The notes beneath the pieces are model-generated. The model ran no database searches. It worked only from the letters and a program-made list of their open reading frames with translations, and was not told where the DNA came from. Shown here piece by piece: positions 29,482-45,549 of a DNA stretch of 64,000 nucleotides. The stretch spans positions 1,178,001-1,242,000 of the forward strand of contig NZ_AP018448.1 of the NCBI RefSeq assembly GCF_030294945.1, given 5' to 3'. The position numbers were made by a program, and so were the translations under genes. Position 1 is the stretch's first letter, and each line of letters opens with the position of its first letter. The stretch is from Streptomyces graminofaciens (GTDB taxonomy: Bacteria > Actinomycetota > Actinomycetes > Streptomycetales > Streptomycetaceae).

Positions 29482-30249
29482 CTAGGCGCAGCGTCGTACG
29501 GCGGTGCCCGTCGTGCTCGGGGTGAAGCCGCGGCCCCGTCTCGTCGCCGTCGGCGTGGGGTGGGGGGCGGCGGGCGGCGGTGCGGCGTCCAGCCAGTGGA
29601 GCACCGCCTGGGTGCGGCCGGAGACGCCGAGCTTGGTGTAGATGCCGCTGAGATAGTTGCGGACGGTCTTCACCGTGAGGCACATCCGCTGCCCTATCTC
29701 CGAGACCCCGAGTCCGCTGGCGATCAGGTCCATGACCTGTCGTTCGCGCGGTGACAGGGTTCCGCGCAGCCGTTCCTGCCGAGCGGCCGGAGCGGCGGGG
29801 TGTGCGGCGGCGGGGGCGAGGTCCCGGCAGAGCGCCCTGACGGTCGGGGAGACCAGGGTGTGGCGCTGGGCGGTGCTCCACAGGGCGTGCATGAGGGTCC
29901 AGCCGTCGTAGTCCCCCTCGACCAGGCAGCTGGTCACGCCGAGGCGGAACACGTCACCGATCTCCCTGAGGCCGTCCACGGAGCAGACGAGGAGAAGCGG
30001 GGGCGCGTCCGTGCCCAGCGGTGCCAGATACCGGGAGACGTCACGGGCCGCCTCCGCGCCGCGCACCAGCACGAGATGGCACGGTCCGTCGAGGAGTTCG
30101 CCGTACGGGGAGGAGACGTGGCGCAGCCGTATCCCGTCGTCCCGGCTCAGAAGGTCCCCGTGCGGCCAGTCCCCCTCGTCACCGACCACGGCCACGTCGA
30201 GGGTGAAGGACGGCCCAAGGGCCGGAACCGGAACCGCAGCCGTGACCAT
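29482..30249 (-). CDS. LuxR-type regulator with degenerate receiver-like domain
   Basis: 255 residues from ATG 30249 (MVTAAVPVP); AAGG lies about 12 bases upstream. The N-terminal ~140 residues have the length of a receiver but lack its phospho-acceptor pattern (LVLVRGAEAARDVSRYLAPLG, LLLVCSVDGLREIGDVFRLGV). The C-terminal helix-turn-helix is clear: LSPRERQVMDLIASGLGVSE, IGQRMCLTVKTVRNYLSGIYTKLGVSGR. A Pro/Thr-rich tail follows. It is divergent from the response regulator gene and shares a twin-dyad intergenic region, suggesting phosphorylation-independent control near the RiPP-like cluster. Confidence 0.8.
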   Translation of the reverse strand: MVTAAVPVPALGPSFTLDVAVVGDEGDWPHGDLLSRDDGIRLRHVSSPYGELLDGPCHLVLVRGAEAARDVSRYLAPLGTDAPPLLLVCSVDGLREIGDVFRLGVTSCLVEGDYDGWTLMHALWSTAQRHTLVSPTVRALCRDLAPAAAHPAAPAARQERLRGTLSPRERQVMDLIASGLGVSEIGQRMCLTVKTVRNYLSGIYTKLGVSGRTQAVLHWLDAAPPPAAPHPTPTATRRGRGFTPSTTGTAVRRCA

Positions 30250-30392
30250 CGAGCACCGCACCTTGCATTCCTTCCGCCGGGAACGAGGACGACCGGGCGC
30301 GCTCCCGCTGGGGTTGGCGCCCTGCCCGTCCGAACCGCTGCGGACGGACGGGCTGTCGTCTTGGACTGTCCTCCGGCGCAGCTCAGGCGACC

Positions 30393-30439
30393 ATCGGCCG
30401 TTCGGCCGATTTCCCGGAGCCGGCGTCGGCCGAACGGCC
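30393..30439. promoter_or_regulatory. Twin dyads between divergent LuxR-type genes
   Basis: ATCGGCCGTTCGGCCGAT (30393-30410) is a perfect 18-bp palindrome. A second dyad, GGCCG-AA-CGGCC (30428-30439), has its centre 32 bp away. Both share GGCCG-N2-CGGCC and lie between the starts at 30249 (minus) and 30536 (plus). Confidence 0.5.
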
Positions 30440-30535
30440 ATGCCGTCCGCTCCGGGACCGACGATTGATCACGGATACCACGGACTTGGCGGTATTCGAC
30501 CAGGAGTTCGGCCCTTCTATGGAAGGATCAGCGGC

Positions 30536-31210
30536 GTGAGCAGCACCCGTATCCGTGTCCTCATCGCCGACGACCAGGACCTGGTCCGCGTCGGTTTCCG
30601 GCTCATCCTCGACGCCCAGGAGGGCATCGATGTGATCGGCGAGGCCGCCGACGGGCTCACCTGCCTGGACATGGTCCGGCAACTGCGGCCGGATGTCTGT
30701 CTGGTGGACATCCGGATGCCGGGACTGGACGGCCTGGAGGTGACCCGGCGCCTGGCCGGGCCCGGGGTCGTCGACCCGGTGCAGGTGGTGGTGATCACGA
30801 GCTTCGACCACGACGACTACATCAACACCGCCCTGCGCAACGGGGCTTGCGGCTTCCTGCTCAAGGACGCCACCCCGGCCCTGCTGGTCGAGGCGGTACG
30901 GGCCGCGGCGCGTGGTGACGCGCTGGTCTCGCCCGCGGTGACCGTCCGGCTGCTGAAGCGCCTGGAGGAGCAGACGTCCTCGTCGCGGTCCGGCTCGGAC
31001 CCGTCCGGGTCGCCGCTCAGTGCCCGGGAGCTGGAGGTCGTCCAGCGCGTGGCGGTGGGCCGCACCAACCAGGAGATCTGCGACGAGCTGTTCCTGTCCC
31101 TCTCGACGGTCAAGACCCACCTGGGCAAGATCCACGGCAAGCTCGGCGTACGCAACCGCGTCGAGGTGGCCGCCTGGGCCTGGGCGAACGGCGCCGTCCG
31201 AGCGGGATGA
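30536..31210 (+). CDS. NarL/LuxR-family response regulator
   Basis: 224 residues from GTG 30536, preceded by GGAAGGA. Receiver domain: RVLIADDQDLVRVGF, phospho-acceptor Asp in VCLVDIRMPG, Ser/Thr switch in VVITSFDHDD and Lys in FLLKDATP. C-terminal helix-turn-helix: LSARELEVVQRVAVGRTNQE, ICDELFLSLSTVKTHLGKIH. It pairs with the HisKA_3 kinase at 31453, 242 bp downstream on the same strand, and is well placed to control the downstream RiPP-like cluster. Confidence 0.93.
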   Translation: MSSTRIRVLIADDQDLVRVGFRLILDAQEGIDVIGEAADGLTCLDMVRQLRPDVCLVDIRMPGLDGLEVTRRLAGPGVVDPVQVVVITSFDHDDYINTALRNGACGFLLKDATPALLVEAVRAAARGDALVSPAVTVRLLKRLEEQTSSSRSGSDPSGSPLSARELEVVQRVAVGRTNQEICDELFLSLSTVKTHLGKIHGKLGVRNRVEVAAWAWANGAVRAG

Positions 31211-31298
31211 CCCCAACTGCCGTACACCGCCGCACTGTTGTGTGGCGCGGACACACTCGGGACGGGCGGACGGCCGTACGAACGTGACGGCCCTACTC

Positions 31299-31362
31299 AC
31301 ATGACGGCAGTGCGGACATGACGGCAGTGCGGACATGACGGCCGTGCGTACATGACGGTCAG
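31299..31362. repeat. 17-bp tandem repeats upstream of the kinase gene
   Basis: Two identical copies of ACATGACGGCAGTGCGG (31299-31315 and 31316-31332) are followed by a variant ending GGCCGTGCGT (31333-31349) and a partial fourth copy (from 31350). A degenerate copy precedes them. They lie between the regulator and kinase genes and could be iterated binding sites or a slippage product. Confidence 0.85.
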
Positions 31363-31452
31363 ACGGGAAGAAGTCCGGCAACCGGTCGTGTCCATGCCCA
31401 CAGATCCGGCGAACGGCCCGCGCGGCGACAGAGGCTTACATACGCTCGCCCC

Positions 31453-32727
31453 ATGACCCACTCGGCACCCTCGCACCTCCCACGGCGCGCCCTTCGTGTC
31501 GGCCTCGGTGCGTTGTACGCGGCGCTCGGTCTGTTGTGGCTGCTCGACGTCGAGTTGGTCTGGCTCCAGCAGCAGCACCTCAGTGATTGGCTGCCCACAC
31601 TGACCGGTCCGATCGCGGTGGCGTTGCTCCTCATGCCGCAGCGATGGCTCACCACGGAGTGGCGGGCGGGGGTGGCCGCGGTCGGCTCGTCGGTGCTGAC
31701 GGTGGCCACCATCGTGGTCGGGCGGTCGATGCCCGACTGGGGGCTGGTGGAGACGGCGTGTTTACTCATCCTGCTGGCCCGCACCTGCCGCACCGTCAGG
31801 CAGCCCGGTATCGCCCTCGTCCTGTCGGCGGGGCTCGGTGCCGCCGTGATAGACGAACCGCTGCGGTCCGAGGGGACCGGGATCACCCTGACGTATCCGT
31901 TCCTGCTGACGTTCGCCGTCGGGGCCGCGATCGGCACAGGGTGCTACCAACGCTCCATGGACGCCCGGCGGGCACGTTCGGTGGCCGCGGCACGGCTCGC
32001 CGAGCGGCTCCAACTCGCCCGCGAACTACACGACTTCGTCGCCCATCACGTCACCGGCATCGTCGCGCAGGCGCACGCGGCCGGCGTCATCCACCAGAGC
32101 GCGCCCCAGCAGATCGGGCCCATCCTGCAGAACATCGCGGAGGCCGGCCAGCAGACGCTGGACTCGATGCGCCGTCTGGTCCGGGTGCTGCGCGAGGACA
32201 AGGAGTCCCCGGCCGAGGCCGTCGTACGCCGGGGCGGGCGCGGTCGCGGTCGCTCCGACGAACCGAAGCCGGTCCTCACCGAGTTGGCCCCGCTCCTCAC
32301 CGATCTGGTCGCGTCGTTCAGCGAGCCGGGCGACGGGACGGTGGCGCGGCTGGAGATCTCCGCCGTCGCCCGCCGCAGTCTCGTCGCGCCCGAGGTGGAA
32401 TCGGCGGTGCATCGTGTGGTGCAGGAGGCCCTGACCAATGTGCGCCGGCACGCCCCGGGCACCCAGGCCACCGTACGCGTCCACCGGACCGACGACGGGC
32501 TGCTCCGGGTCGACGTCCACAACACCGAGGCCCGGGTGCCGGTGGGCGTCCCGACCGGGGGCCACGGCGGCTTCGGCCTCACCGGTCTGCGGGAGCGGGC
32601 GTACGCCGTGGGCGGCACCTTCACGGCGGGCCCTGGTGACGACGGCGGCTGGTGGGTCATCGCCCACTTCCCGACCGCCCAGGACCCGGCCATGCCCCGG
32701 GCCCGCCATGCGAGCGGTGCCCGTTAG
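31453..32727 (+). CDS. Sensor histidine kinase, NarX/DesK (HisKA_3) type
   Basis: 424 residues. About five or six hydrophobic helices occupy residues 12-165, then a cytoplasmic kinase: phosphoacceptor His in LARELHDFVAHHVTGIVAQAH, and HATPase_c with EALTNVRRHAPG and GGFGLTGLRERAYAVGG. It is the obvious partner of the response regulator upstream. A TTA leucine codon at 31762-31764 (residue 104) suggests dependence on the bldA tRNA, tying the system to late growth. It ends at a 16-bp bidirectional hairpin. Confidence 0.92.
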   Translation: MTHSAPSHLPRRALRVGLGALYAALGLLWLLDVELVWLQQQHLSDWLPTLTGPIAVALLLMPQRWLTTEWRAGVAAVGSSVLTVATIVVGRSMPDWGLVETACLLILLARTCRTVRQPGIALVLSAGLGAAVIDEPLRSEGTGITLTYPFLLTFAVGAAIGTGCYQRSMDARRARSVAAARLAERLQLARELHDFVAHHVTGIVAQAHAAGVIHQSAPQQIGPILQNIAEAGQQTLDSMRRLVRVLREDKESPAEAVVRRGGRGRGRSDEPKPVLTELAPLLTDLVASFSEPGDGTVARLEISAVARRSLVAPEVESAVHRVVQEALTNVRRHAPGTQATVRVHRTDDGLLRVDVHNTEARVPVGVPTGGHGGFGLTGLRERAYAVGGTFTAGPGDDGGWWVIAHFPTAQDPAMPRARHASGAR

Positions 32728-32761
32728 GGCCAAGGGGCCCGTACTTTCTCCGCGTCAGCAG

Positions 32762-32799
32762 CCGTGCCGCTCACCGGTGGAACCCGGTGAGCGGCACGG
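32762..32799. terminator. Bidirectional terminator hairpin
   Basis: CCGTGCCGCTCACCGG (32762-32777) pairs perfectly with CCGGTGAGCGGCACGG (32784-32799) around a 6-nt loop. It separates the convergent kinase and small LuxR genes. Confidence 0.8.
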
Positions 32800-32841
32800 A
32801 AGCGGTCGGATGTGGTTGTCGCGGAGACGGGGCTCGGGCCA

Positions 32842-33189
32842 TCACCGTCCAGGACCTTCGCCGCGCACCTTCGTCGGGCAGGTGAGGCGAAACGTCTCTT
32901 CGGGGTCGCCGCCGCTCGGTCGCGCGGAGGACCACTCCGTACGGATGGCGAGCACACCGGCGCGCAGTGCCCGCACCACCAGATGGGTGCGGTTCTTGGC
33001 GCTCAGCTTGTCCCTGATGCTGGACAGGTGCGCGCCCACCGTGCGGGGCGAAATCGACAGGGAGGCGGAGATCTCCGAATCCGACATGCCGTGTGCCGCC
33101 AGGAGTAATATCTCGCGTTCCCGGGGGCTGAGCTGTTCGGAACGATTTCCTGCCGCTCCCGCCTCGGGCAATGAACTGTCCAGGCTCAT
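32842..33189 (-). CDS. Small LuxR-type DNA-binding protein
   Basis: 115 residues from ATG 33189, preceded by GGGAG. Nearly the whole protein is a LuxR helix-turn-helix: LSPREREILLLAAHGMSDSE, ISASLSISPRTVGAHLSSIRDKLSAKNR (about 20-70), with short tails and no receiver or ligand domain. Stand-alone LuxR domains often act as cluster-situated activators. It lies next to the RiPP-like cluster and reads away from it, leaving a 554-bp region before the oxidoreductase gene. Confidence 0.85.
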   Translation of the reverse strand: MSLDSSLPEAGAAGNRSEQLSPREREILLLAAHGMSDSEISASLSISPRTVGAHLSSIRDKLSAKNRTHLVVRALRAGVLAIRTEWSSARPSGGDPEETFRLTCPTKVRGEGPGR

Positions 33190-33743
33190 GTCGCTCCCTG
33201 AAGAGGTGCGCCGCACGGATGGACGGGCGCTGATTCTCTCCGGAATGCCGACCGGGAGCGGTACACAGCTCGGGGCACGATCGATGTCAAATCCATGTGG
33301 GTGGATTTCCCTTCCGTGGAACCGTTTCCGTGGCGCGGTGACGACGAAGGACAGGTGTTCTCGGTCATGTCCTCGTACCGGCGCTCGACACGGACCGCAC
33401 TCGCCGAATTCACCGTTTCGCGGAGGCGGTGAGCAGATGCTGACACAACTCTGAGAAATTTCACAGAAACGTCCCGCCCAATGAAAGAGCGGCTCTCCGG
33501 AACCCCTCCCCCCGGAAGCCTCGCCCCGCCCTCGCCCGGTGATGAATCGGCCGCGACATCCGCCCAGGTAAGGCGGCGAATCGGAGGAGAGCAGTTCCGC
33601 TTCGATGGAGGCGCCGGGGAGCCGGATCAGCCGCCACTAGGTAATTTTGCGAATCGCACGGAACACACGCACCGTCTAACCTCGCAACCCACCCGAACAA
33701 CGCCCGGCCGGCGACGCTTCGGCCCTCATCGAGAGGAGCCCAC
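33190..33743. promoter_or_regulatory. Divergent regulatory region before the RiPP-like cluster
   Basis: No supported gene lies here. It contains a near-palindrome TGAGAAA/TTTCACA at 33452-33465 and the first of three TAGGTA elements (33638-33643, followed by ATTTTGCGAAT). An open frame at 33481-33747 has no ribosome-binding site and unlikely composition. Confidence 0.5.
33638..33655 (+). promoter_or_regulatory. TAGGTA element, copy 1
   Basis: TAGGTAATTTTGCGAATC lies 106 nt before the oxidoreductase start at 33744. It shares TAGGTA(A/T)TTT and a downstream AAT with copies at 35305 and 40805, each 102-111 nt before the first gene of a transcription unit. Confidence 0.5.
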
Positions 33744-35180
33744 ATGAGCACGGCCATCGTGGTCGGCAGCGGCCCCAACGGTCTGGCGGCGGCGGTCGCA
33801 CTCGCCCGGGAGGGTGTGGAGGTCACCGTGCTGGAGGCCGCCCCCACCATCGGCGGCGGTACGCGTACCAGCGAACTGACCCCGGGCCTTCTCCACGACC
33901 ACTGCTCGGCGACCCATCCCATGACCGTCGGATCCCCCTTTCTGCGCACCCTGGACCTGGAGCGTCACGGGTTGCGGTGGCGCCTCCCGGAGATCGACTG
34001 CGTCCATCCGCTGGACTCGGGCGACGCCGGGGTGCTCCACCGGTCGGTGACGGGCACGGCGGACGGCCTGGAGGAACGGGACGGACGGATGTGGCAGCGG
34101 TTGTTCGGCCCGGTCGCGGGTCATTACGACGCGCTCGCCGAGGACCTCATGCGCCCCCTCCTCCACCTGCCGAAACACCCCCTGCCCATGGCCGCGTTCG
34201 GCGCGTCGGCGCTGCTGCCGGCCGGTGTGGTGGCCCGGCTGTGGCGCTCCGAGCGCGCCCGCGCCCTGTTCGCGGGGGTCGCGGCGCACGCGTTCCGCCC
34301 GTTCCACCGCCCCATGACGGCCGCCGTCGGACTGATGATCATCGGCGCCGGGCACCGGCACGGCTGGCCCGTGGCCGCGGGCGGCTCCCGGGCGATCAGC
34401 GACGCGCTCGCCGCCCTGCTGGCCGACCTCGGTGGCCGGATCGAGACCGGTGTGCCGGTGCGGTCCATGGCGCAGCTACCGCCGGCCGACGTGGTCCTCT
34501 TCGATCTCGCCCCGCGTGCGGTCGCCGAGATCGTGGGGGACCGGCTGCCGGGACGGGTCGCACGCGCGTACCGCCGGTTCCGGCACGGTCCCGGTGCCTT
34601 CAAGGTCGATTTCGCGGTCGATGGCGGTGTCCCATGGCGCAACGAAGCGGCGCGTCGGGCCGGCACGGTGCACCTCGGCGGCCCCTACGACGAGGTCGCC
34701 CACACCGAACGGATGATCCACGCCGGCCGGATGCCCACGCGGCCCTTCGTGCTGGTCGGCCAGCAGTATCTGGCCGATCCCCAGCGGTCCGACGGCGACG
34801 TCCACCCCGTGTGGACGTACGCCCACGTGCCCCATGGCTACGACGGCGACGCCACGGAGGCCATCGTCGGTCAGATCGAACGGTTCGCCCCCGGCTTCCG
34901 CGAGCGGGTCCTCGCCATGTCCGTCCGCCCGCCGTCCGGCTTCGAGGAGTACAACCCGAACTACGTCGGCGGAGACATCGTCACGGGAGCGAACACCGCG
35001 CTCCAGCTCGTGATGCGGCCCCGTATAGCCCTGGATCCCTACAGCACCGGAGTTCCGGGCCTTTTCATCTGCTCCGCCGCGACGCCGCCCGGGGCCGGCG
35101 CCCACGGCATGTGCGGGGCGGGAGCGGCGGCCTCGGCCCTGCGCCATCTGCGCGCGACAAAACAGACCGTGAACAGCTGA
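33744..35180 (+). CDS. Phytoene-desaturase-like NAD(P)/FAD oxidoreductase of the RiPP-like cluster
   Basis: 478 residues; GAGAGGAG lies before the ATG. FAD Rossmann start IVVGSGPNGLAAAVALAREG, VLEAAPTIGGGTRT, and the C-terminal GVPGLFICSAATPPGAGAHGMCGAGAA are typical of CrtI-like flavoproteins. I recall a phytoene-dehydrogenase-like enzyme in some linaridin clusters, so it may modify the peptide redox state, but a carotenoid role is not excluded; no prenyl-chain genes are nearby. It has its own TAGGTA element and T-run terminator, so it is transcribed separately from the precursor. Confidence 0.85.
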   Translation: MSTAIVVGSGPNGLAAAVALAREGVEVTVLEAAPTIGGGTRTSELTPGLLHDHCSATHPMTVGSPFLRTLDLERHGLRWRLPEIDCVHPLDSGDAGVLHRSVTGTADGLEERDGRMWQRLFGPVAGHYDALAEDLMRPLLHLPKHPLPMAAFGASALLPAGVVARLWRSERARALFAGVAAHAFRPFHRPMTAAVGLMIIGAGHRHGWPVAAGGSRAISDALAALLADLGGRIETGVPVRSMAQLPPADVVLFDLAPRAVAEIVGDRLPGRVARAYRRFRHGPGAFKVDFAVDGGVPWRNEAARRAGTVHLGGPYDEVAHTERMIHAGRMPTRPFVLVGQQYLADPQRSDGDVHPVWTYAHVPHGYDGDATEAIVGQIERFAPGFRERVLAMSVRPPSGFEEYNPNYVGGDIVTGANTALQLVMRPRIALDPYSTGVPGLFICSAATPPGAGAHGMCGAGAAASALRHLRATKQTVNS

Positions 35181-35197
35181 TCGCATTCCACCCGATG

Positions 35198-35230
35198 TCA
35201 CTCCCGGCCACTGCCGGGAGTGATTTTTTT
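35198..35230 (+). terminator. Canonical intrinsic terminator
   Basis: TCACTCCCGGC (35198-35208) pairs with GCCGGGAGTGA (35213-35223) around CACT and is followed by seven T residues (35224-35230). It ends the oxidoreductase transcript before the precursor promoter region. Confidence 0.9.
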
Positions 35231-35415
35231 GTGCGCGATTACGCGCAAAGAACCTGTACGTAAAAAACAGGGCCAGCGTTCATGTGAACTGCGCCACCCG
35301 GGATTAGGTATTTTCCACAATGTGCGACCGGACGCCGCTGGGGCATTGTTTCTTTCACGAAAGCGGCACCGGAGAAACAAGACTCCGGGTAATCAGTTCC
35401 GAAAGGAAAAAGGAA
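35231..35415 (+). promoter_or_regulatory. AT-rich leader region of the precursor gene
   Basis: This region is clearly more AT-rich than its surroundings. It holds dyads TGCGCG-ATTA-CGCGCA (35232-35247) and GTTCA-TG-TGAAC (35278-35289), then TAGGTA copy 2 at 35305-35322 (TAGGTATTTTCCACAATG), 111 nt before the start codon. The ribosome-binding site AAAAAGGAA directly precedes ATG 35416. Confidence 0.6.
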
Positions 35416-35724
35416 ATGAGCCACATCGCGAAGGCAGTGGACAGCCTGAACCTCCCCGTGGAGGGGATCATCCTGGGGGCCGCCCGCCCCACCCTGGGCA
35501 CTCCGCGTATCGGTCGGGCCGGGCGTGGCGCCGGTGGCGGTGCCGGTCGCGGCCTCGCCGCACTGGGTGCGATCGCGGACCTCGCCGGTGTCGCCGGCGG
35601 TGTCGGCGCGACGGTCGGTGCCGCGTCCACCGTGGAGGCGGCCAACGCCTCCGTGGCAGCGGACCAGGCCGTGGCCCAGGCCGCGGCGGACGTCGCCGCG
35701 GGCGCTGGTGCTCCGCCGGCCTGA
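35416..35724 (+). CDS. Candidate linaridin-like RiPP precursor peptide
   Basis: 102 residues with a strong AAAAAGGAA ribosome-binding site. The N-terminus MSHIAKAVDSLNLPVEGIIL looks like a leader. It is followed by PTLGTP (residues 25-30), matching the PxxxTP motif I recall from linaridin precursors, which in cypemycin spans the leader/core cleavage. The rest is extremely Gly/Ala-rich (GRAGRGAGGGAGRG, ADVAAGAGAPPA), with no Cys and only four Thr and four Ser overall. That is few for a linaridin, whose Thr residues become dehydrobutyrine. It is followed by a hairpin and then the modification genes. Small-ORF status is secure; class is inference. Confidence 0.7.
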   Translation: MSHIAKAVDSLNLPVEGIILGAARPTLGTPRIGRAGRGAGGGAGRGLAALGAIADLAGVAGGVGATVGAASTVEAANASVAADQAVAQAAADVAAGAGAPPA

Positions 35725-35830
35725 TCACATTGCCCCGATCCGGGGTCTGTCAGCTCGTAAGAAAGCAGAGGCCGCCCGAATCAAGCGGTGCGACAAGTCT
35801 GTAGGAGCTGACGCGAGAAGTGCTTGAAGA

Positions 35831-35863
35831 CTGCCGGGCCAGAGGCCTGTTCTGGCCCGGCAG
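35831..35863 (+). terminator. Hairpin between precursor and modification genes
   Basis: CTGCCGGGCCAGA (35831-35843) pairs perfectly with TCTGGCCCGGCAG (35851-35863) around a 7-nt loop. Partial readthrough would give excess precursor transcript over enzyme transcript, a common arrangement in RiPP operons. Confidence 0.7.
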
Positions 35864-35917
35864 CGCACTGCAAAGGGAAAGATTCCTCCGGCGGAGGCTA
35901 TCACGATTGGGGTTCCA

Positions 35918-37840
35918 GTGAAATTCACCGGAAAAATACCTTCCAGCATTCCCGGAAGGATCAATTCGGCGGTGTTCGCCCCGGCTCCGGTCGGCCGGGA
36001 CCGCGCCATCGCCATGTCCGAGCGGCTGGCCGCCATGTCCTCTCTCACCTCGTCACTGGAGTACCTGACCCAGCGCAAGGACATCGAGAAGGGAGGCATG
36101 AGCGACTGGGAGGTCGGCAAGGGGTACCTGGCGGGCTCCGGCCCGCTCACGCGCCGACTGGTCGACAGCGTCAGCGGAGTGCGGACCACGACCGCCCTGC
36201 ACATCGCGCGCTCCGCGGTGTCCGCCGCCATGCTACTGCCGGGCAACTCCCGCTGGCGGGGCGCGGGCAGCCTCTTCCTCGGCACCACCTCGGCCCTGCT
36301 CTCCCCGCGCCACCACTACGGCGCCGACGGTTCCGACCAGGTGGCGTCGCTGGTGCAGCTGGCCACCGGCGCCGCCCGCCTCGTACCGTCGCCGGCGGCC
36401 AAGGACGCGCTGCTGTGGTACACAGCCCTCCAGGGCAACCTCGCCTACGCGGTGTCCGGTTGGGTCAAGCTCTTCGGCAAGAGCTGGCGCGACGCCTCCG
36501 CTCTGGGCGGTGTCATGCGCACCCGGACCTACGGTCATGAGGGCATGTACCGGTGGACGCAGGAACACCCCCAGGTCACCAAGGTGCTCACCCACAGCGT
36601 GCTGGCGCTGGAGTGCCTCTTCCCGCTCGCCTACGCGCGAGGCGGCAAACTGACCCGTTCCATGATCGCCAGTGCCGCCGCGTTCCACCTGGCCAACGGC
36701 TATTTCCTCGGTCTGGGCAGGTTCGCGACCGCCTTCCCCGCGTTCCATCCGCTGATCGCCTACACCTCCGCTCCACGTTCCCACCCCACGGTCGCCGGAC
36801 GGGACGACCGTGCCGTGCAGACCGCGCTCGCCGCGCTCGCCGCGGGTGTGGCCGCGGCGGCTGTAACCGCCGTGCAGCGGCGCCTGCGCACCACGGAGGG
36901 CTGGCACAGCTCACGGGTGCTGACCACGCGGCACGGCAACCTGCTGCAGTACGAGGAGTACTCGCCGGGCGCTCCGGAGAAGCCGGTCGTCGTGCTCGCC
37001 AGCGGGCTGTTGTCCACCAGCGAGCACTACGCCTGGATCTCCGAGCGCCTTGCCCACGACACCGGGTACGGGGTCATCACCTACGCCCGCGCCGGGTACG
37101 CCGGCAGCCACCGCAAGGCCACCGGTCCCTTCCGTCTGGTGGAGTCCGTCCACGACCTGGTGGACCTGGTGAACGGTGCCGTCGCCCCGCACCGCAAGGT
37201 GATCCTGGTCGGCCACTCGATCGGTGGGGAACTCGCCCGCCGCGCAGCCCTGCACCTGGGCGACCGCGTCGAGGGCGTCGTCTATCTCGACGCCTCCCAC
37301 CCGGGCCAGTTCAACAGTGGGCAGAGTCTGGTCGACATCGGTCTGGGCGGGAGTTTCACCGCCGTGAGCCGGGCGCTGCGCCTGGGGACCGGAATCCTCC
37401 TCAACCGGCCGACTTGGCTCGACGAACTGCCCCATGCCTACCGGAAGAAGGTCCACGCCCAGTACGCGGACTCTCGCATGTGGGAGGCGGCGCGCCGCGA
37501 ATGGAAGGCGGTGCAGGCCGACTTCCGGTCCTTCCCCGGGACGCTCAGCAGGATCGAGGGGGTGCCCGCCCTGGTGGTCTCCGCACAGCGGACCGTGGAC
37601 AGCAACCCCGCACAGCTGCTGCTCCACAGGGAACTCGCCGAGGCCCACACCGGCACGCGTACCAAGACGGTGGTCGTAGAGAACGCCACACACGAGAGCA
37701 TGCTGATCAACAGCCGTCACGCCCATCAGGTGTCGGATCTCATCATCGCCTTCTTCGGCGACGACGGTCGCGCCCCGGTCGCCGAGCCCGTCCGCTCCCC
37801 CGGCAGGAAGCCCCAGCACACGAAGGAGACCGTCCGGTGA
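35918..37840 (+). CDS. Fused HTTM-like membrane domain and alpha/beta hydrolase (LinH-like)
   Basis: 640 residues from GTG 35918. The N-terminal ~320 residues are polytopic and HTTM-like: GADGSDQVASLVQLATG, GNLAYAVSGWVKLFGKSWRD, then FHLANGYFLGLGRF. The C-terminal half is an alpha/beta hydrolase with oxyanion region VVVLASGLLSTSEHY, nucleophile elbow GHSIGG (about 431-436), acid near YLDASH and His in ENATHES. I recall this exact fusion as CypH/LinH of linaridin clusters, needed with a partner for dehydrobutyrine formation. It overlaps the next start by 4 bp. Enzymatic chemistry is not proven for this family. Confidence 0.82.
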   Translation: MKFTGKIPSSIPGRINSAVFAPAPVGRDRAIAMSERLAAMSSLTSSLEYLTQRKDIEKGGMSDWEVGKGYLAGSGPLTRRLVDSVSGVRTTTALHIARSAVSAAMLLPGNSRWRGAGSLFLGTTSALLSPRHHYGADGSDQVASLVQLATGAARLVPSPAAKDALLWYTALQGNLAYAVSGWVKLFGKSWRDASALGGVMRTRTYGHEGMYRWTQEHPQVTKVLTHSVLALECLFPLAYARGGKLTRSMIASAAAFHLANGYFLGLGRFATAFPAFHPLIAYTSAPRSHPTVAGRDDRAVQTALAALAAGVAAAAVTAVQRRLRTTEGWHSSRVLTTRHGNLLQYEEYSPGAPEKPVVVLASGLLSTSEHYAWISERLAHDTGYGVITYARAGYAGSHRKATGPFRLVESVHDLVDLVNGAVAPHRKVILVGHSIGGELARRAALHLGDRVEGVVYLDASHPGQFNSGQSLVDIGLGGSFTAVSRALRLGTGILLNRPTWLDELPHAYRKKVHAQYADSRMWEAARREWKAVQADFRSFPGTLSRIEGVPALVVSAQRTVDSNPAQLLLHRELAEAHTGTRTKTVVVENATHESMLINSRHAHQVSDLIIAFFGDDGRAPVAEPVRSPGRKPQHTKETVR

Positions 37841-38547
37841 GTGCCTTGTCGCATCCGAGCTCGAAGAACCCGTTCGCCGGCGAGGGAGCCCCCTGGCGGA
37901 TCGCCGGAGCCGCCGCACTGCTGCTGACCCTCGCGGCCCAGCACCCCAACCACGAGTTCAACCGGGTCCGCACCAGGGACATCTTCTCCATGCTGCCGAA
38001 CTGGCGGTTCTTCGCGCCAAATCCGGCCATGTACGACTACCACTTCCTGTACCGCACCGTGCACGCGGACGGTTCGGCCTCGACGTGGCACGACATCAGC
38101 GGCATCGAGGACCGCAAGCCCATGCACCTCATCTGGTTCCCGACCCGCCGCGCTGACAAGTCCGTCTTCGACGCCTGCCAGGAGATGCTGCAGCGACTCG
38201 ACCACGGCTTCCCGGCTGTCGTTCGCACTCCTGGGTACCGGCTGGTCGTAGAGCGCGTACGGGCTCGGATCACGGCCGGGGACGAAACGGTCGGGGAGGC
38301 GGCTCCGGGCGGAACGGCCGAGGCCCGGGGTTTCCAGTTCGCGCTTGCCTCCGGCACGGGATACGACCTGCGGCACAAACCCCAACTCCTGTTCGTCTCC
38401 CCCTTCGTCCCACTCGCCCCTCACGCGCCGAGCAGTCCGCTGACTCCGATCACCCTCGCCAAGTCGTCCGACTGGACCGGCGACGTGGCGCCTGACAAAG
38501 CACCCGCCAAGGCACCCGGCAAGACACCTGAGAGGACAGGCTCATGA
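37837..38547 (+). CDS. WRFFAPNP-motif protein, HTTM partner in the RiPP-like cluster
   Basis: 236 residues from GTG 37837 (GTGA overlap), with AAGGAG upstream. One hydrophobic segment (about 20-35, IAGAAALLLTLAAQ) is followed by FSMLPNWRFFAPNP, a pattern seen downstream of HTTM membrane domains, then a soluble alpha/beta region (HDISGIEDRKPMHLIWFPTRR) and a Pro/Lys-rich tail. Together with the upstream fusion it probably forms the membrane modification complex. It overlaps the 41-residue membrane peptide gene by 4 bp. Comparable accessory proteins occur in type-B linaridin clusters as I remember them. Confidence 0.7.
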   Translation: MSALSHPSSKNPFAGEGAPWRIAGAAALLLTLAAQHPNHEFNRVRTRDIFSMLPNWRFFAPNPAMYDYHFLYRTVHADGSASTWHDISGIEDRKPMHLIWFPTRRADKSVFDACQEMLQRLDHGFPAVVRTPGYRLVVERVRARITAGDETVGEAAPGGTAEARGFQFALASGTGYDLRHKPQLLFVSPFVPLAPHAPSSPLTPITLAKSSDWTGDVAPDKAPAKAPGKTPERTGS

Positions 38548-38669
38548 GCCTCGACAACCCCTTCTTGATCGCCGGTGGCGCGATCTTCCTGCTCGGCCTG
38601 GTCAAGGCGGGCGCCCTCTACTTCCAAGGGACGCGGGAACCGAACCAGGAAGAGAGGGAGACCGAGTGA
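38544..38669 (+). CDS. 41-residue single-pass membrane peptide
   Basis: Starts on ATGA overlap at 38544 and encodes MSLDNPFLIAGGAIFLLGLV followed by KAGALYFQGT and an acidic tail REPNQEERETE. One membrane helix covers about residues 7-24. Three consecutive coupled genes suggest it belongs to the modification complex. It is too short for standard gene finders and is probably unannotated. A second core peptide is unlikely because of the membrane-helix pattern and charged tail. Confidence 0.6.
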   Translation: MSLDNPFLIAGGAIFLLGLVKAGALYFQGTREPNQEERETE

Positions 38670-38698
38670 CCTTGGCCGGCACGATCGCCACGAGTGCC

Positions 38699-38737
38699 CC
38701 CGCCGCCCGCCCGGTTCGACTCCGGGCGGGCGGCGGG
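38699..38737 (+). terminator. Hairpin before the ABC exporter gene
   Basis: CCCGCCGCCCGCCCGG (38699-38714) pairs perfectly with CCGGGCGGGCGGCGGG (38722-38737) around TTCGACT. This 16-bp all-GC stem lies 29 bp after the 41-residue ORF and 41 bp before the exporter start. Confidence 0.75.
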
Positions 38738-38778
38738 TGGTTCCGGCCCCAGGTCCCTGGCCCCGCCGAGGACGCGAC

Positions 38779-40770
38779 ATGAGCGACCGGACCACCGACG
38801 AGGGCGGGCACCGGCGTCCGCGGGAACAGCGGACGGACCTGACGAAGGCCTCGGAGAGCGCCTCGCAGCAGGGCCCGGAACAGGGCCGGAGAGCGACCCG
38901 AGAGAAGCGGGGACACGGGCAGGGCATGAGCAAGGATCAGCAGCAGATGGAGGACGGGACCGCTCGGCGTCGCGCCGGGCACCGGGCGGTTCCCCAGCTT
39001 CACCTGCATCTGCTGTGGGGCAAGGGCGCCAAACCCTGGCAGGCCCTCGGCCGGCACCGCAGGCTGATCGTCCTCGGCATCCTGCTCGGTCTGACGGGCG
39101 CGGCGACGTCCCTGGCGCAGCCCGCGGTGATCGGCCAACTGGTGGGCGCCGCGGAGAAGGGACGGCCGGTGACCGAGCCGATCCTCATCGCCGCGGCACT
39201 GTTCACCGCCGACGCCGTCCTCGGCGCGCTGCACTCGTACACCATCGGGCTGGCCGGGGAGAACATCGTCTACGACATCCGCTCCACCTTGACGTCACGT
39301 CTGCTGCGCTCCCGGTTCCGGGCGTACAGCGACTGGCAACAGGGCGATGTGTTCTCCCGGATGGTCAGCGACACCCTGCTCGCCCGGTCCACCATGACGC
39401 ACGCGATCGACAGCATCCTCAACAACGGTTTCCTGGTCATCGGCGGCATCGTGCTGATGGCCTGGATCGACATGGTGCTGCTCGCCGCGACGCTCGTGTG
39501 TCTCGGTGTCACCAGCGTCGTCTCCCTGTGGCTCGCTCGGGGGGTCCACCGGGTGTCGGTGCGCAACCAGACCGACACCGGCAACTTCGGCTCCGCGCTG
39601 CTGCGGGTGCTGGGCGCGATGCCCACGGTGAAGGCGTCGCGTGCCGAGAGCCGGGAGGCGGAGGGCATCGCGGTCATCGCCAAGGAAGCCCGTAAGTCCG
39701 GGATCAAGGTGACGGTCATGTCGTCGCTGCTGGATCCGACCATGAGCATCGGTACCCAGCTCGCTCTGACCGTGGTCATCGGTCTGGGCGCGGCCCGCAG
39801 TGCGACGGGCGCGATGCCCGCGGCGGATCTCACGGCGTTCATCCTGTACCTCTTCTACCTGGTGGCACCGCTGCTGCAACTGTTCGAGTCCATTGCCCAG
39901 TTCCAGGTCGGCAGGGCATCAGTGGACCGGCTGGCGGAACTCGGCAGGATCGAGGTCGAGACCGACCAACGGTACGACCCGGCGACGGCCCGTACTCGTA
40001 GTGGCCGCTCCCGTAGCCGCGGATACGAGGCAGGGCTCGTCTTCGACGAGGTCCGCTTCTCCTATCCGAACAGCCAGCAGGTGATTCTGGGCGGGGTCTC
40101 CTTCACCGTTCCGGACCGCGGGCTCACCGCGATCGTGGGGCCGTCCGGCGCCGGCAAGTCCACCGTGTTCCAGCTGATCGAGCGGCTCTTCGACCCGGTG
40201 TCCGGGGTGATCAGGATCGACGGCACGGACATCACCGACATGCCGCTGAACCAGCTCCGGTCCGTCGTCGGTTATGTGGACCAGGACCACACGCTGCTGC
40301 GCGGCTCCGTGCGGGACAACCTCACGTACTCCGCTCCGAACGCCGGCGACAAGGACATCGCCGAGGCATTACGCATGGCCAACCTCACCGAGGTCATCGC
40401 GGCCCTGCCGAACGGACTCGACACCGGACTCGGCGACCGCGGCGCCGGGCTGTCCGGCGGTCAGCGGCAGCGCCTGGCCATCGCCCGCACCCTTTTGCAG
40501 ACTCCCAGATTTCTGCTTCTGGACGAGGCGACCGCGAATCTGGACAGCGAATCGGAAGGCGCCCTGCGGGACAGCATCGCCATGATCTCGGAATTCTGCG
40601 CGGTCATCGCCATCGCACACCGGCTGTCCACGGTCACCCAGGCACAGCAGATCATCGTCATGGACAAGGGCACGGTACAGGCGACCGGTACGCATGCCGA
40701 TCTGAACCGGACCAATGCCCTCTACAGCAGGCTGTCGAAGCTGCAGGAACTCAGCGACATCGCATCCTGA
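38779..40770 (+). CDS. ABC exporter, fused membrane and ATPase domains (RiPP-like cluster)
   Basis: 663 residues from ATG 38779 with GAGGA six bases upstream; the first ~80 residues are a charged, Gln/Arg-rich extension. The type IV exporter membrane domain spans about 90-370 (six helices), then the ATPase: Walker A GPSGAGKST (about 453), Q-loop YVDQD, signature LSGGQRQR (about 557), Walker B FLLLDEAT (about 578) and H-loop AHRLST. No C39 peptidase domain is present, so leader removal must be elsewhere. It fits LinT/CypT. A TTA codon at 40369-40371 suggests bldA control. Confidence 0.9.
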   Translation: MSDRTTDEGGHRRPREQRTDLTKASESASQQGPEQGRRATREKRGHGQGMSKDQQQMEDGTARRRAGHRAVPQLHLHLLWGKGAKPWQALGRHRRLIVLGILLGLTGAATSLAQPAVIGQLVGAAEKGRPVTEPILIAAALFTADAVLGALHSYTIGLAGENIVYDIRSTLTSRLLRSRFRAYSDWQQGDVFSRMVSDTLLARSTMTHAIDSILNNGFLVIGGIVLMAWIDMVLLAATLVCLGVTSVVSLWLARGVHRVSVRNQTDTGNFGSALLRVLGAMPTVKASRAESREAEGIAVIAKEARKSGIKVTVMSSLLDPTMSIGTQLALTVVIGLGAARSATGAMPAADLTAFILYLFYLVAPLLQLFESIAQFQVGRASVDRLAELGRIEVETDQRYDPATARTRSGRSRSRGYEAGLVFDEVRFSYPNSQQVILGGVSFTVPDRGLTAIVGPSGAGKSTVFQLIERLFDPVSGVIRIDGTDITDMPLNQLRSVVGYVDQDHTLLRGSVRDNLTYSAPNAGDKDIAEALRMANLTEVIAALPNGLDTGLGDRGAGLSGGQRQRLAIARTLLQTPRFLLLDEATANLDSESEGALRDSIAMISEFCAVIAIAHRLSTVTQAQQIIVMDKGTVQATGTHADLNRTNALYSRLSKLQELSDIAS

Positions 40771-40804
40771 TCTCGAATTCGACTTTCCGATCCCGTGCCA
40801 TGAA

Positions 40805-40822
40805 TAGGTATTTCTCTCAATG
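40805..40822 (+). promoter_or_regulatory. TAGGTA element, copy 3
   Basis: TAGGTATTTCTCTCAATG lies 102 nt before the 52-residue ORF. It matches copy 2 (35305-35322) at TAGGTATTT-N5-CAATG with identical spacing (N5 counted so that both end in CAATG). Confidence 0.5.
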
Positions 40823-40906
40823 GTTCGGAATCCCGCAGGGACCTAACGTCGAATCAGAAAAGGCCCTCGCACATACCGTCCACCCGAGACGGAGAAGGGA
40901 AACACG

Positions 40907-41065
40907 ATGAGTCATCTTCTGCTCTGTCCGGCCGTCGTGGTCATCGGAATATTCGGGTTTCTGATCGCCAATCAGGCGGTCGCCCTCCCGGCCCTCATCG
41001 GCGCCGCACTGCTCGTGCCGACCGGCGTCGCCGCCCAGCTCAGGAAGAAGAGGCAGCACTCATGA
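40907..41065 (+). CDS. 52-residue two-helix membrane peptide
   Basis: ATG 40907 is preceded by GGAGAAGGGA. It encodes MSHLLLCPAVVVIGIFGFLI, a short ANQAVALP turn, a second hydrophobic stretch ALIGAALLVPTGVAA and a basic tail QLRKKRQHS. Two membrane helices are predicted. It overlaps the methyltransferase start by 4 bp. The first two residues, MSH, echo the precursor start, but composition argues against a core peptide. It may be an immunity or scaffold peptide; function unknown. Confidence 0.6.
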   Translation: MSHLLLCPAVVVIGIFGFLIANQAVALPALIGAALLVPTGVAAQLRKKRQHS

Positions 41066-41865
41066 AAACAGCCGACACGACCGACGTCGTCGACGACATC
41101 GGCTACGGACTGCAGTTCGCCGGTTGGTACGACCGTCTGTTCCCCAGCGACGACTCCGTCGACGTCGAGGTGGAGCGTCTCGTCTCGCTCCATCCGGACC
41201 CGGGCTCCGGCACCGTCGAGTTCGGCGTGGGCAACGGCCGGCTGGCGCTGCCGCTCTCCCGGCGGGTGGGACCCGTCGTCGGCGTCGACTCCTCGGCCGA
41301 GATGCTCGACGTCCTGCGCGCGAACCTCCGCCCCGACACCCCCGTCGAAGCCGTCCACGCCGACATCCGTACCTACACCGCCGCCCGCACCGTGGGACTC
41401 GTCTACTGCGTGTGCGCCACCCTGTCGATGCTCCTCACCCCCGAGGACCAGCGGCAGGCCGTACGGCGGGCCGCCGACCTGCTCGCCCCCGGCGGCCGGC
41501 TCGTCGTGGAGACCCACAACAAGTCGGCGATCGTCGACCTCCACGAAGGCCGCCGCCGGGCCACGTTCTTCACCCCGTACCCGACCGCCGGCACCGGTCT
41601 GCAGAGCCACTCCGTACTCGAGCCCGAGGATTCCCTGTGGCATCTCTCCCACATCTGGTACGAGGCCGACGGCAGCACCCGGGTCGGCACCGAGGTCTCC
41701 CGGCTGACCGGTGCCGACGAACTGGACGCGTACGCCCGCGCCGCAGGTCTGTGGCCGGAGAGCCGCCTCGGCGACTGGGACCCGGAAGCGGACACGCACG
41801 ACGAACTCTCGCCCCTGACCATCTGCACCTACGTCAAACCGTCCCGCCCCGCGTCGGCGGCGTGA
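41062..41865 (+). CDS. SAM-dependent methyltransferase, probable RiPP N-methyltransferase
   Basis: 267 residues, ATGA-coupled to the upstream 52-residue ORF. Class I Rossmann methyltransferase: motif I VEFGVGNGRLALPLS (about 51-65), acidic end of strand 2 VGVDSSAEML, VHADIRTY, and LAPGGRLVVETHN. This size and type fits CypM/LinM, which dimethylates the N-terminal amine of linaridins. It is the last gene before a 14-bp-stem terminator and so probably the end of the cluster. Confidence 0.87.
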   Translation: MKTADTTDVVDDIGYGLQFAGWYDRLFPSDDSVDVEVERLVSLHPDPGSGTVEFGVGNGRLALPLSRRVGPVVGVDSSAEMLDVLRANLRPDTPVEAVHADIRTYTAARTVGLVYCVCATLSMLLTPEDQRQAVRRAADLLAPGGRLVVETHNKSAIVDLHEGRRRATFFTPYPTAGTGLQSHSVLEPEDSLWHLSHIWYEADGSTRVGTEVSRLTGADELDAYARAAGLWPESRLGDWDPEADTHDELSPLTICTYVKPSRPASAA

Positions 41866-44664: not shown

Positions 44665-45549
44665 GAGGTCCTAACAGAAGTTGTTGATCAAGTGACTTTC
44701 GACTTGGGTGGTCGTTGGTCTAGTCGTGGGGAAACGTCAGTCGCGGCCGTGGATCGTGTCGGACGAACTGTGGTCGCTCATCGAGCCGTTACTGCCCGAG
44801 CCGGGGCCGAAGCTGGTGGCGGGCCGGCCGCGGGTGCCGGACCGACAAGCCCTGTGCGGGATCCTGTTCGTGCTGCACACGGGCATCCAGTGGGAGTACC
44901 TGCCCCAGGAACTGGGCTTCGGCTCGGGCATGACCTGCTGGCGGCGCCTGGCCGCATGGAACGAGGCCGGTGTGTGGGAGAAGCTGCACCTGGTGCTGCT
45001 GAAGAAGCTGCGGTCGGCGAAGCAGCTGGACTGGTCGAGGGCGGTGATCGACTCCTCCCACGTGCGGGCGGCCCGACGGGGCCCAAAAGCGGTCCCAGCC
45101 CGGTCGACCGCGCACGGCCGGGCAGCAAGCACCACGTCCTTGTCGACGGGCAGGGCATCCCGCTCGCGGTGTCGCTGACCGGCGGCAATCGCAATGACGT
45201 CACTCAGCTGATCCCGCTGCTGGACAAGATTCCACCCGTGGCCGGCGCGGTCGGGAGGCCGCGGAGACGGCCGGACATGCTCTTCGCGGACCGCGGCTAC
45301 GACCACGACAAGTACCGGCGACTGCTGCGGAAACGCGGCATCCGGCCCGCGATCGCCGAACGGGGCCAGCCACATGGCTCCGGCCTGGGCATCTTCCGCT
45401 GGGTCGTCGAGCGCACCATCTCCTGGCTCCACGGCTTCCGTCGCCTGCGCATCCGCTGGGAACGACGCGACGACATCCATGAAGCCTTCCTCGGCCTCGC
45501 CACCTGTCTCATCACCCACCGACACGTCCAACGCCTTTGTTAGGACCTC
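44665..45549 (+). mobile_element. IS5-family insertion sequence (IS427-like), complete
   Basis: 885 bp. Left end GAGGTCCTAACAGAAG and right end CTTTGTTAGGACCTC are imperfect inverted repeats (12 of the outer 12 match). The element is flanked by TTA on both sides (44662-44664 and 45550-45552), a TNA target duplication typical of the IS427 group. It carries one transposase in two overlapping frames. It sits between the isomerase remnant and a terminator hairpin at 45559. Confidence 0.9.
44726..45543 (+). CDS. IS5-family transposase made by -1 ribosomal frameshift
   Basis: The first frame (start GTG 44726 or 44708, stop 45178) has the IS5 helix region WIVSDELWSLIEPLLPEPGP with TGIQWEYLPQELGFGSG, and the first catalytic Asp in VIDSSHVRA. 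The second frame carries HHVLVDGQGIPLAVSLTGGN, the second Asp in FADRGYDHD and Glu in WVVERTISWLHGFRRL, ending at 45543. They overlap at slippery heptamer CCCAAAA (45082-45088), read C-CCA-AAA in the first frame; a -1 slip joins GPKA to GPKSGPS. No other lesion is visible, so the element may be active. Confidence 0.9.

What the first reader, a model, noticed from the sequence alone, without database searches (positions are those of the whole stretch)
33744..41865. Linaridin-like RiPP biosynthetic cluster
Seen: a small Gly/Ala-rich ORF with a PxxxTP motif, a membrane-domain/alpha-beta-hydrolase fusion, a WRFFAPNP protein, a phytoene-desaturase-like flavoprotein, an ABC exporter and a SAM methyltransferase, all co-oriented and mostly 4-bp coupled. 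Known (from memory): linaridin clusters such as cypemycin carry precursor, LinH (hydrolase fused to membrane domain), LinM, LinT and accessory membrane proteins. Inference: this makes a linaridin-like or new linear dehydrated peptide. No LanD-like decarboxylase is present, so C-terminal AviCys is not expected.
Basis: partly seen in the sequence, partly recalled or inferred. Interest (0 to 1): 0.92.

Follow-up and report, generated by a model that had tools for sequence, protein, structure and literature searches.

The report
Linaridin-type cluster with unusual precursor peptide
This stretch of a Streptomyces-type genome is a gene cluster of a known antibiotic-peptide family (linaridins), but of a subtype whose precursor peptide is long, rich in alanine and glycine, and almost without the threonines and serines that the family usually dehydrates.

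Summary
In detail: a co-oriented cluster with a small PxxxTP peptide lies at 33744-41865. It is linaridin-type. The 640-aa protein aligns with LinH of two cypemycin-type clusters (tblastn E 3e-36, 8e-32). The methyltransferase is a close relative of YunM (PDB 7wzf, E 3e-100). In three clusters with a curated linaridin precursor, the flavoprotein has a homologue in 3, the exporter a strong one in 2, the methyltransferase in 1.

New: nine clusters (one LinL clade) share a long precursor; all eight readable ones match no NCBIfam linaridin model. Cores are 59-75 residues, over half Ala+Gly; in seven, Thr+Ser is 2.9% past GTP, against 10-20% in three curated-type cores. Nine of nine encode an unlisted ~40-aa membrane peptide after LinL; the seven with a methyltransferase a second before it. 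The host also has an orphan, Thr-richer paralogous precursor 1.4 Mb away, behind a similar upstream element.

Best reading (inferred): LinH/LinL mainly epimerise this core; cleavage at PTL|GTP; N-methylation of Gly1. New variant of a known kind; product chemistry unproven.

The parts
30536..31210 (+). NarL-type response regulator (GTG start), probable cluster regulator
   Evidence: coordinates; 75-78% identical syntenic homologue in 6 of 8 related clusters
31453..32727 (+). sensor histidine kinase
   Evidence: Pfam HisKA_3/HATPase_c; syntenic in 6 of 8 related clusters, 59-65%
32842..33216 (-). small LuxR-type HTH regulator
   Evidence: 52-66% homologue in 8 of 8 related clusters fetched, incl. 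the two without the two-component pair, where it lies downstream
33744..35180 (+). phytoene-desaturase/CrtO-like flavoprotein; possibly the 'LinC' oxidoreductase of linaridin clusters (not shown)
   Evidence: NAD_binding_8, Amino_oxidase, CrtO/crtI_fam far below cut-off; 45-46% homologue in 3 of 3 NF033402-type linaridin clusters
35305..35322 (+). upstream element TAGGTATTTTCCACAATG before the precursor
   Evidence: at 1 mismatch or fewer it precedes the cluster precursor in 5 of 9 genomes; reversed-pattern control 0 in 9 genomes
35416..35724 (+). precursor peptide, 102 aa; leader + PTLGTP + 75-residue Ala/Gly-rich core (core taken from GTP on)
35918..37840 (+). LinH: N-terminal HTTM-like membrane part fused to alpha/beta hydrolase (640 aa, GHSIGG)
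37837..38547 (+). LinL (DUF5819-like, LPNWRFFAPNP), 236 aa
38544..38669 (+). small peptide with one hydrophobic stretch, 41 aa, overlaps LinL stop by 4 bases; accessory/immunity candidate
   Evidence: a 40-43-aa counterpart at the same position in 9 of 9 clusters of the subtype
38926..40770 (+). ABC exporter, TM and ATPase fused
   Evidence: 79-82% in the 8 related clusters
40805..40822 (+). second copy of the upstream element (1 mismatch), before the small ORF-methyltransferase pair
40907..41065 (+). small protein, 52 aa, two hydrophobic stretches and basic tail, 4-base overlap with methyltransferase; immunity candidate
   Evidence: a 63-aa counterpart in the 6 other methyltransferase-bearing clusters of the subtype (7 of 7 with the window)
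41062..41865 (+). SAM methyltransferase, YunM-like, predicted alpha-N-methyltransferase
   Evidence: PDB 7wzf YunM 338 bits, 7wzg cypemycin N-terminal methyltransferase 27 bits

Best explanation
A linaridin-family biosynthetic cluster of a distinct subtype. The 102-aa precursor is bound through its conserved leader (SLNLPVEGIILGAARP). The membrane pair LinH (HTTM-like part + alpha/beta hydrolase) and LinL modify the core; because it has almost no Ser/Thr and no Cys, the main change is inferred to be epimerisation of Ala/Val/Leu/Ile residues, with dehydration of the Thr of GTP and of at most a few others. The leader is cut inside PTL|GTP, the new N-terminal Gly is methylated by the YunM-like enzyme, a CrtI-like flavoprotein adds an unknown oxidation, and the ABC protein exports the product. 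Two tiny membrane proteins probably give immunity or help modification, and a two-component system may drive transcription through an element before the precursor and before the small ORF-methyltransferase pair. Shown here: gene homologies, subtype clade, precursor conservation, small ORFs, repeated element. Inferred: every chemical step, cleavage place, immunity, regulation.
For: LinH homology to two type-A clusters, one of whose precursors (L071, the one scanned) matches NCBIfam linaridin_CypA at 89 bits; LinL homology with the near-invariant P.WRFFAP.P core; YunM-like methyltransferase; among three clusters holding an NF033402 precursor, CrtI-like in 3, ABC strong in 2, YunM-like MT strong in 1; leader conservation and variable core; Ser/Thr-poor core; nine-row LinL clade with SH-aLRT 100 in a quick tree. 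[quoted passage not shown] grmL said to be indispensable and potentially a peptide epimerase gene (passage, PMC10373908); salinipeptins contain D-residues (passage, PMC7641383); corynaridin is cut at PxxxTP (passages, PMC9927463).
Against: No product is known. A 75-residue core is two to four times longer than the two cypemycin-type and three NF033402-type cores seen here (19-37). The eight readable precursors of the subtype match none of the NCBIfam linaridin precursor models at E<=1. L032, one of the two methyltransferase-less sister clusters, has no TP, and none is seen after the N gap in the other, L088, so TP is not strictly needed. Two of the three NF033402 clusters lack a close YunM-like enzyme. 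The cut inside PxxxTP of cypemycin is recalled by me, not read. The flavoprotein's role is unknown. Hydropathy periodicity of seven cores is not significant at 100 or 180 degrees.
Confidence: 0.72

Rival explanations
1. An ordinary type-B linaridin: the few Thr/Ser (Thr of GTP, GATVG, ASTVE, NAS) are dehydrated, the rest is unmodified, and the subtype differs only in sequence.
For: Window core has 3 Thr and 2 Ser; flavoprotein, exporter and methyltransferase kinds recur in NF033402-type clusters (3, 2 and 1 of 3); corynaridin is dehydrated at all seven Thr and its Ser (passages).
Against: These Thr/Ser are few among the seven GTP-bearing cores: 13 Thr+Ser in 447 positions past GTP; L031 and L083 have one Ser and no Thr there.
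Confidence: 0.3
2. The mature peptide is only the first 30-45 core residues; the Ala/Asn/Gln-rich C-terminal half is a spacer or follower that is removed.
For: By eye the core has two parts: a Gly-rich hydrophobic stretch and an Ala-rich polar tail of variable length (alignment); cypemycin-type and NF033402-type cores seen here are 19-37 residues.
Against: A tail is present in all eight readable precursors; I noticed no second cleavage motif or peptidase gene, but made no dedicated search for either.
Confidence: 0.2
3. A daptide-like peptide whose C-terminus is changed into a methylated amine.
For: The methyltransferase hits NF041820 daptide_MTase at 71 bits.
Against: That score is far below the model's cut-off of 175; YunM fits far better (338 bits); the core does not end in Thr; no aminotransferase or alcohol dehydrogenase is among the cluster genes identified (daptide features as named in PMC10036551 passages; no dedicated search was made for them or for an RRE).
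Confidence: 0.02

Closest known systems
Type-A linaridins (cypemycin, grisemycin, salinipeptins)
   Same: LinH and LinL homologues, PxxxTP precursor, an ABC gene, a methyltransferase
   Different: No LanD-like gene, no Cys in the core, methyltransferase of another branch (7wzg only 27 bits; no significant match to the L071 enzyme), core 75 instead of 19-22 residues
NF033402 'linaridin family RiPP' clusters (which I take to be the type-B, legonaridin group), corynaridin
   Same: LinL, HTTM-like part and hydrolase; CrtI-like flavoprotein in 3 of 3, same ABC kind strong in 2 of 3, YunM-like MT strong in 1 of 3
   Different: There the hydrolase and HTTM parts are separate genes and the core has 10-20% Thr+Ser past TP
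Yunnanaridin clusters of Streptomyces yunnanensis (link to YunM inferred from its name)
   Same: Methyltransferase 7wzf YunM aligns over 254 of 267 residues
   Different: Precursors could not be compared; the paper is seen as a reference title only
Two-precursor, short-core linaridin-type clusters in Streptomyces (e.g. L037-L048)
   Same: Fused LinH, LinL, MT, ABC, flavoprotein; neighbours in the LinL tree
   Different: Gene order mostly H-L-MT-ABC-flavoprotein and two precursors with aliphatic cores (34 precursors of short type tallied: median core 34 residues); window subtype has one long precursor with the flavoprotein gene upstream of it

Membership tests
Linaridin | LinL homologue (used to find linaridin clusters per PMC9927463, passage) | tested here: met
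   tblastn E 9.5e-13 and 7.3e-12 to L071/L072 LinL; WRFFAP conserved
Linaridin | LinH / HTTM + alpha-beta hydrolase | tested here: met
   E 2.6e-36 and 7.7e-32; HTTM profile in 3 of 29 family members at E<=1, not in the window protein itself
Linaridin | PxxxTP in precursor | tested here: met
   PTLGTP in window and 6 other clusters plus orphan; absent in L032, not readable across the N gap in L088
Linaridin | Match to a curated linaridin precursor model | tested here: not met
   NF033402, NF033403, NF033752: no match at E<=1 for the window, the 7 other readable precursors or the orphan; so filed as a variant
Linaridin | Dehydrated Thr/Ser in the product | not testable with these tools
   needs mass spectrometry; few candidate residues
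Linaridin | D-amino acids (shown for type A, passages) | not testable with these tools
   needs chiral analysis
Type-A linaridin | LanD-like decarboxylase and C-terminal Cys | tested here: not met
   no Cys in core; tblastn of two LinD proteins finds none in the window (best E 0.33)
Type-B linaridin | No decarboxylase, an oxidoreductase present | tested here: inconclusive
   flavoprotein shared with 3 of 3 NF033402 clusters, but PMC9927463 calls the type-B oxidoreductase a short-chain enzyme
Daptide | C-terminal Thr with aminotransferase and alcohol dehydrogenase | tested here: not met
   core ends APPA; such genes not among those identified, without a dedicated search

The most novel reading that the evidence does not exclude
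The subtype makes long peptides patterned with D-Ala/D-Val/D-Asn by LinH/LinL acting as a stand-alone ribosomal-peptide epimerase pair, with little or no dehydration, so that a 60-75-residue Ala/Gly-rich chain folds into a membrane-active structure that L-residues alone would not form; and the host diversifies it with an unlinked, Thr-richer precursor processed by the same single LinH/LinL pair.
Probability: 0.22. Interest if true: 0.8.

Novelty: new variant of a known kind. Interest (0 to 1): 0.5.

Why it matters
In the best-known linaridins (type A) dehydration and epimerisation occur together, which makes it hard to say what each of LinH and LinL does. A natural substrate family poor in Ser and Thr and mostly free of Cys would let the epimerase activity be studied nearly alone, and would take ribosomal D-amino-acid peptides of this pathway to lengths near or above 60 residues. 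The two conserved tiny membrane genes and the unlinked paralogous precursor give concrete targets for immunity and in-trans processing.

Tried and rejected
Precursor search in the 5.8-billion-protein set: 911 candidates, none at E<=0.01, perhaps because such ORFs are not predicted and the composition is biased; replaced by a leader search in genomes. The last place (G678, L089) was dropped: the frame starts with Trp and no LinH/LinL was found there. G366 was dropped as a hit inside a 672-aa frame.

Daptide reading rejected (see rivals). Polytheonamide-like D/L alternation was considered only from recalled composition; a hydropathy periodicity test gave nothing significant at 100 or 180 degrees (7 cores, lowest p 0.079). 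A link 'TP lost when the methyltransferase is lost' holds in the two sister clusters as far as readable (one event at most on the tree) but not in general: L055, L056 and L063 keep TP without a methyltransferase match nearby.

The upstream element is not cluster-specific and not universal: at one mismatch or fewer it is found in 5 of 9 genomes of the subtype, not in G256, G591, G570 and G478 (where one search shows looser versions); one-mismatch copies occur at two other places of G000 and an exact one elsewhere in G477, beside genes without visible relation.

PADLOC: no match for LinH or LinL. LinL profile against solved structures: nothing better than E 0.048; flavoprotein: none at E<=1e-6. 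NF033402 in the nine genomes: 0 of 9, with no ringing control. No absence-from-print claim is made: literature searches were made; Claesen and Bibb 2010 and 2011 and Georgiou 2020 were asked for and are not held; Guo 2023, Xue 2023 and Xiao 2022 were seen as reference titles (Xiao 2022 also through a review passage).
Full report
OBSERVATION. Starts of the exporter (38926) and the response regulator (30536) come.

IDENTITY OF THE CORE GENES. Two cypemycin-type clusters came back, Streptomyces poriferorum (L071) and Herbiconiux ginsengi (L072); the L071 precursor passes NCBIfam's 'cypemycin family RiPP' model at 89 bits, cut-off 35 (L072's was not scanned). Against them the window's 640-aa fusion scores E 7.7e-32 and 2.6e-36, and the 236-aa WRFFAPNP protein E 9.5e-13 and 7.3e-12. 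The alignments keep the hydrolase HSIG region and YGxDGxDQ in LinH (29 members) and P.WRFFAP.P in LinL (11 members, nearly so in 33). The Pfam HTTM profile touches 3 of 29 LinH members at E<=1 (best 0.0022), not the window's own, in line with the separate HTTM and hydrolase genes of corynaridin (PMC9927463, passages). That paper also treats LinL as the gene used to find linaridin clusters. LinD of L071 and L072 has no counterpart in the window (best E 0.33 over 22 residues, outside the cluster).

METHYLTRANSFERASE, FLAVOPROTEIN, EXPORTER. The methyltransferase matches PDB 7wzf 'YunM' at 338 bits and 7wzg 'Cypemycin N-terminal methyltransferase' at 27 bits. That YunM belongs to the yunnanaridin linaridins of S. 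yunnanensis is my inference from the name; a review passage states that two clusters of that species gave yunnanaridins A-C (PMC12299652, passages), citing Guo 2023, whose title speaks of linaridins and 'widely distributed LinC oxidoreductases'. A search of 295 genus genomes with NF033402 gave 4 with a match, 3 above cut-off. In the three fetched (L102-L104), the window's flavoprotein has a 45-46% homologue in 3 of 3, the exporter a strong one (E<=1e-160) in 2 of 3 and a weak partial one in the third, and the methyltransferase a strong one in 1 of 3 (61%), a weak one in another (25%) and none in the third. The flavoprotein may be LinC; this is not shown, and PMC9927463 describes the corresponding corynaridin gene as a short-chain oxidoreductase.

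RELATIVES. LinH at E<=1e-20 occurs in 55 of 394 genomes of the family sample, own genome included. I fetched 40 regions from among them (not all hits). LinL is found in 40 of 40, LinH in 39 (the miss, L058, had a hit but not under my tblastn setting), the exporter in 31, the flavoprotein in 31, the methyltransferase in 28, all five in 27 of 40. By my reading, 33 of 41 loci (window included) carry one to three plausible PxxxTP small ORFs, mostly within 1 kb upstream of LinH; in 8 my filter found none (L032, L054, L057, L058, L059, L064, L065, L070), and only L032 was followed up. In 34 precursors of short type that I picked so as to leave out near-duplicates, the core has median length 34 and 7.4% Thr+Ser past TP.

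THE WINDOW'S SUBTYPE. A search with the 35-residue leader in 392 genus genomes gave matches in 8, of which 7 are real clusters including the window's; with L031 and L032 from the first sample there are nine clusters: window, L031, L032, L082, L083, L084, L085, L086, L088. Gene order is flavoprotein, precursor, LinH, LinL, exporter, methyltransferase; no methyltransferase match was found in the fetched stretches of L032 and L088. Their LinL proteins form one clade of nine rows, SH-aLRT 100, nested among the short-precursor clusters (quick tree of 49 rows). In the leader dN is below dS in 28 of 28 pairs; the core varies. Cores with GTP (7) are 61-75 residues, 51-59% Ala+Gly, 0 Cys, and 13 Thr+Ser in 447 positions past GTP (2.9%); the L032 core is 59 residues with one Cys and no TP. 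The three NF033402-type cores have 18, 20 and 10%. No precursor of the subtype (8 readable), nor the orphan, matches any NCBIfam model at E<=1; of 11 short-type precursors scanned, 4 touch a linaridin model at 13-15 bits, none near its cut-off of 35-40.

SMALL GENES. Directly after LinL 9 of 9 clusters encode a 40-43-residue peptide with one hydrophobic stretch (window 38544-38669; the scan asked for such a stretch). Between exporter and methyltransferase the 7 of 7 methyltransferase-bearing clusters encode a 52-63-residue protein with two hydrophobic stretches and a basic tail, overlapping the methyltransferase start by four bases (window 40907-41065). Both are candidates for immunity or accessory subunits; no test of function was possible.

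REGULATION. A response regulator (75-78%) and kinase (59-65%) lie upstream in 6 of the 8 relatives, and the small LuxR-type gene is near in all 8. The element TASGYATTTTYYNCRATG occurs before the precursor (35305), with one mismatch before the small ORF-methyltransferase pair (40805), and before the orphan. In nine genomes there were 10 matches at one mismatch or fewer, in 5 of the 9, and none with the reversed pattern; in those 5 it precedes the cluster precursor. It also occurs at three other places (two in G000, one in G477), so it may be a general promoter type.

ORPHAN PRECURSOR. The own genome has a second leader match 1.44 Mb away: a 71-aa ORF with RPTLGTPRI and a 44-residue core with 6 Thr, counting that of GTP, no LinH or LinL in the fetched 19 kb at E<=1e-3, next to a gene that looks to me like an IS transposase (judged by eye). 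The own genome has one LinH place at E<=1e-20 (3 of 46 candidates scored) and one LinL place at E<=0.01 (33 of 33 candidates scored), both in the window. In the 394-genome sample the orphan matches only cluster precursors of the subtype besides itself, apart from one hit that I dropped.

MECHANISM. From others' work, as far as I saw it: two titles say that a linaridin cluster contains an epimerase gene and that two membrane-associated proteins have the family-determining activity in cypemycin formation; grmL is said to be indispensable and potentially an epimerase gene (passage); salinipeptins contain D-residues (passage); N-terminal dimethylation is done by a locally encoded methyltransferase (passage), though corynaridin lacks it (passage); corynaridin is cut at PxxxTP (passage). 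Applied here, a core nearly without Ser/Thr leaves epimerisation as the main possible LinH/LinL product. This is inference. The exact cut (PTL|GTP) is by analogy with cypemycin, recalled.

VERDICT. A real linaridin-type cluster, a new variant of a known kind. A LinL model (mean pLDDT 75) was made but could not be compared with known folds.

Noticed in passing
G000:C1:2656183-2656398 (L087:9184-9399): Orphan 71-aa precursor paralogue with a similar leader and upstream element but a Thr-richer core, beside a transposase-like gene; the only LinH/LinL pair found in this genome is in the window.
   Followed up: partly
window 44708-45543: Transposase-like ORFs (IS5-type by eye) just downstream of the cluster, in overlapping frames.
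   Followed up: no
L032:7915-8175 and L088 (precursor): The two sister clusters without a methyltransferase match share a precursor core with a single Cys (NVCAVQAN) and no TP seen at the usual place; one of them is interrupted by a run of N.
   Followed up: partly
L035: Two LinH-LinL pairs in one locus, each with its own PxxxTP precursor.
   Followed up: no
G000:C1:742827 and 11599856 (L090, L091): Two near-identical chromosome stretches, one under 3 kb from the right end, share the promoter-like element: perhaps a terminal repeat or duplication.
   Followed up: no
window 29482-33216: Group of NarL/LuxR-type regulators (response regulator and kinase, and two LuxR-type genes on the other strand) upstream of the biosynthetic genes.
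   Followed up: partly
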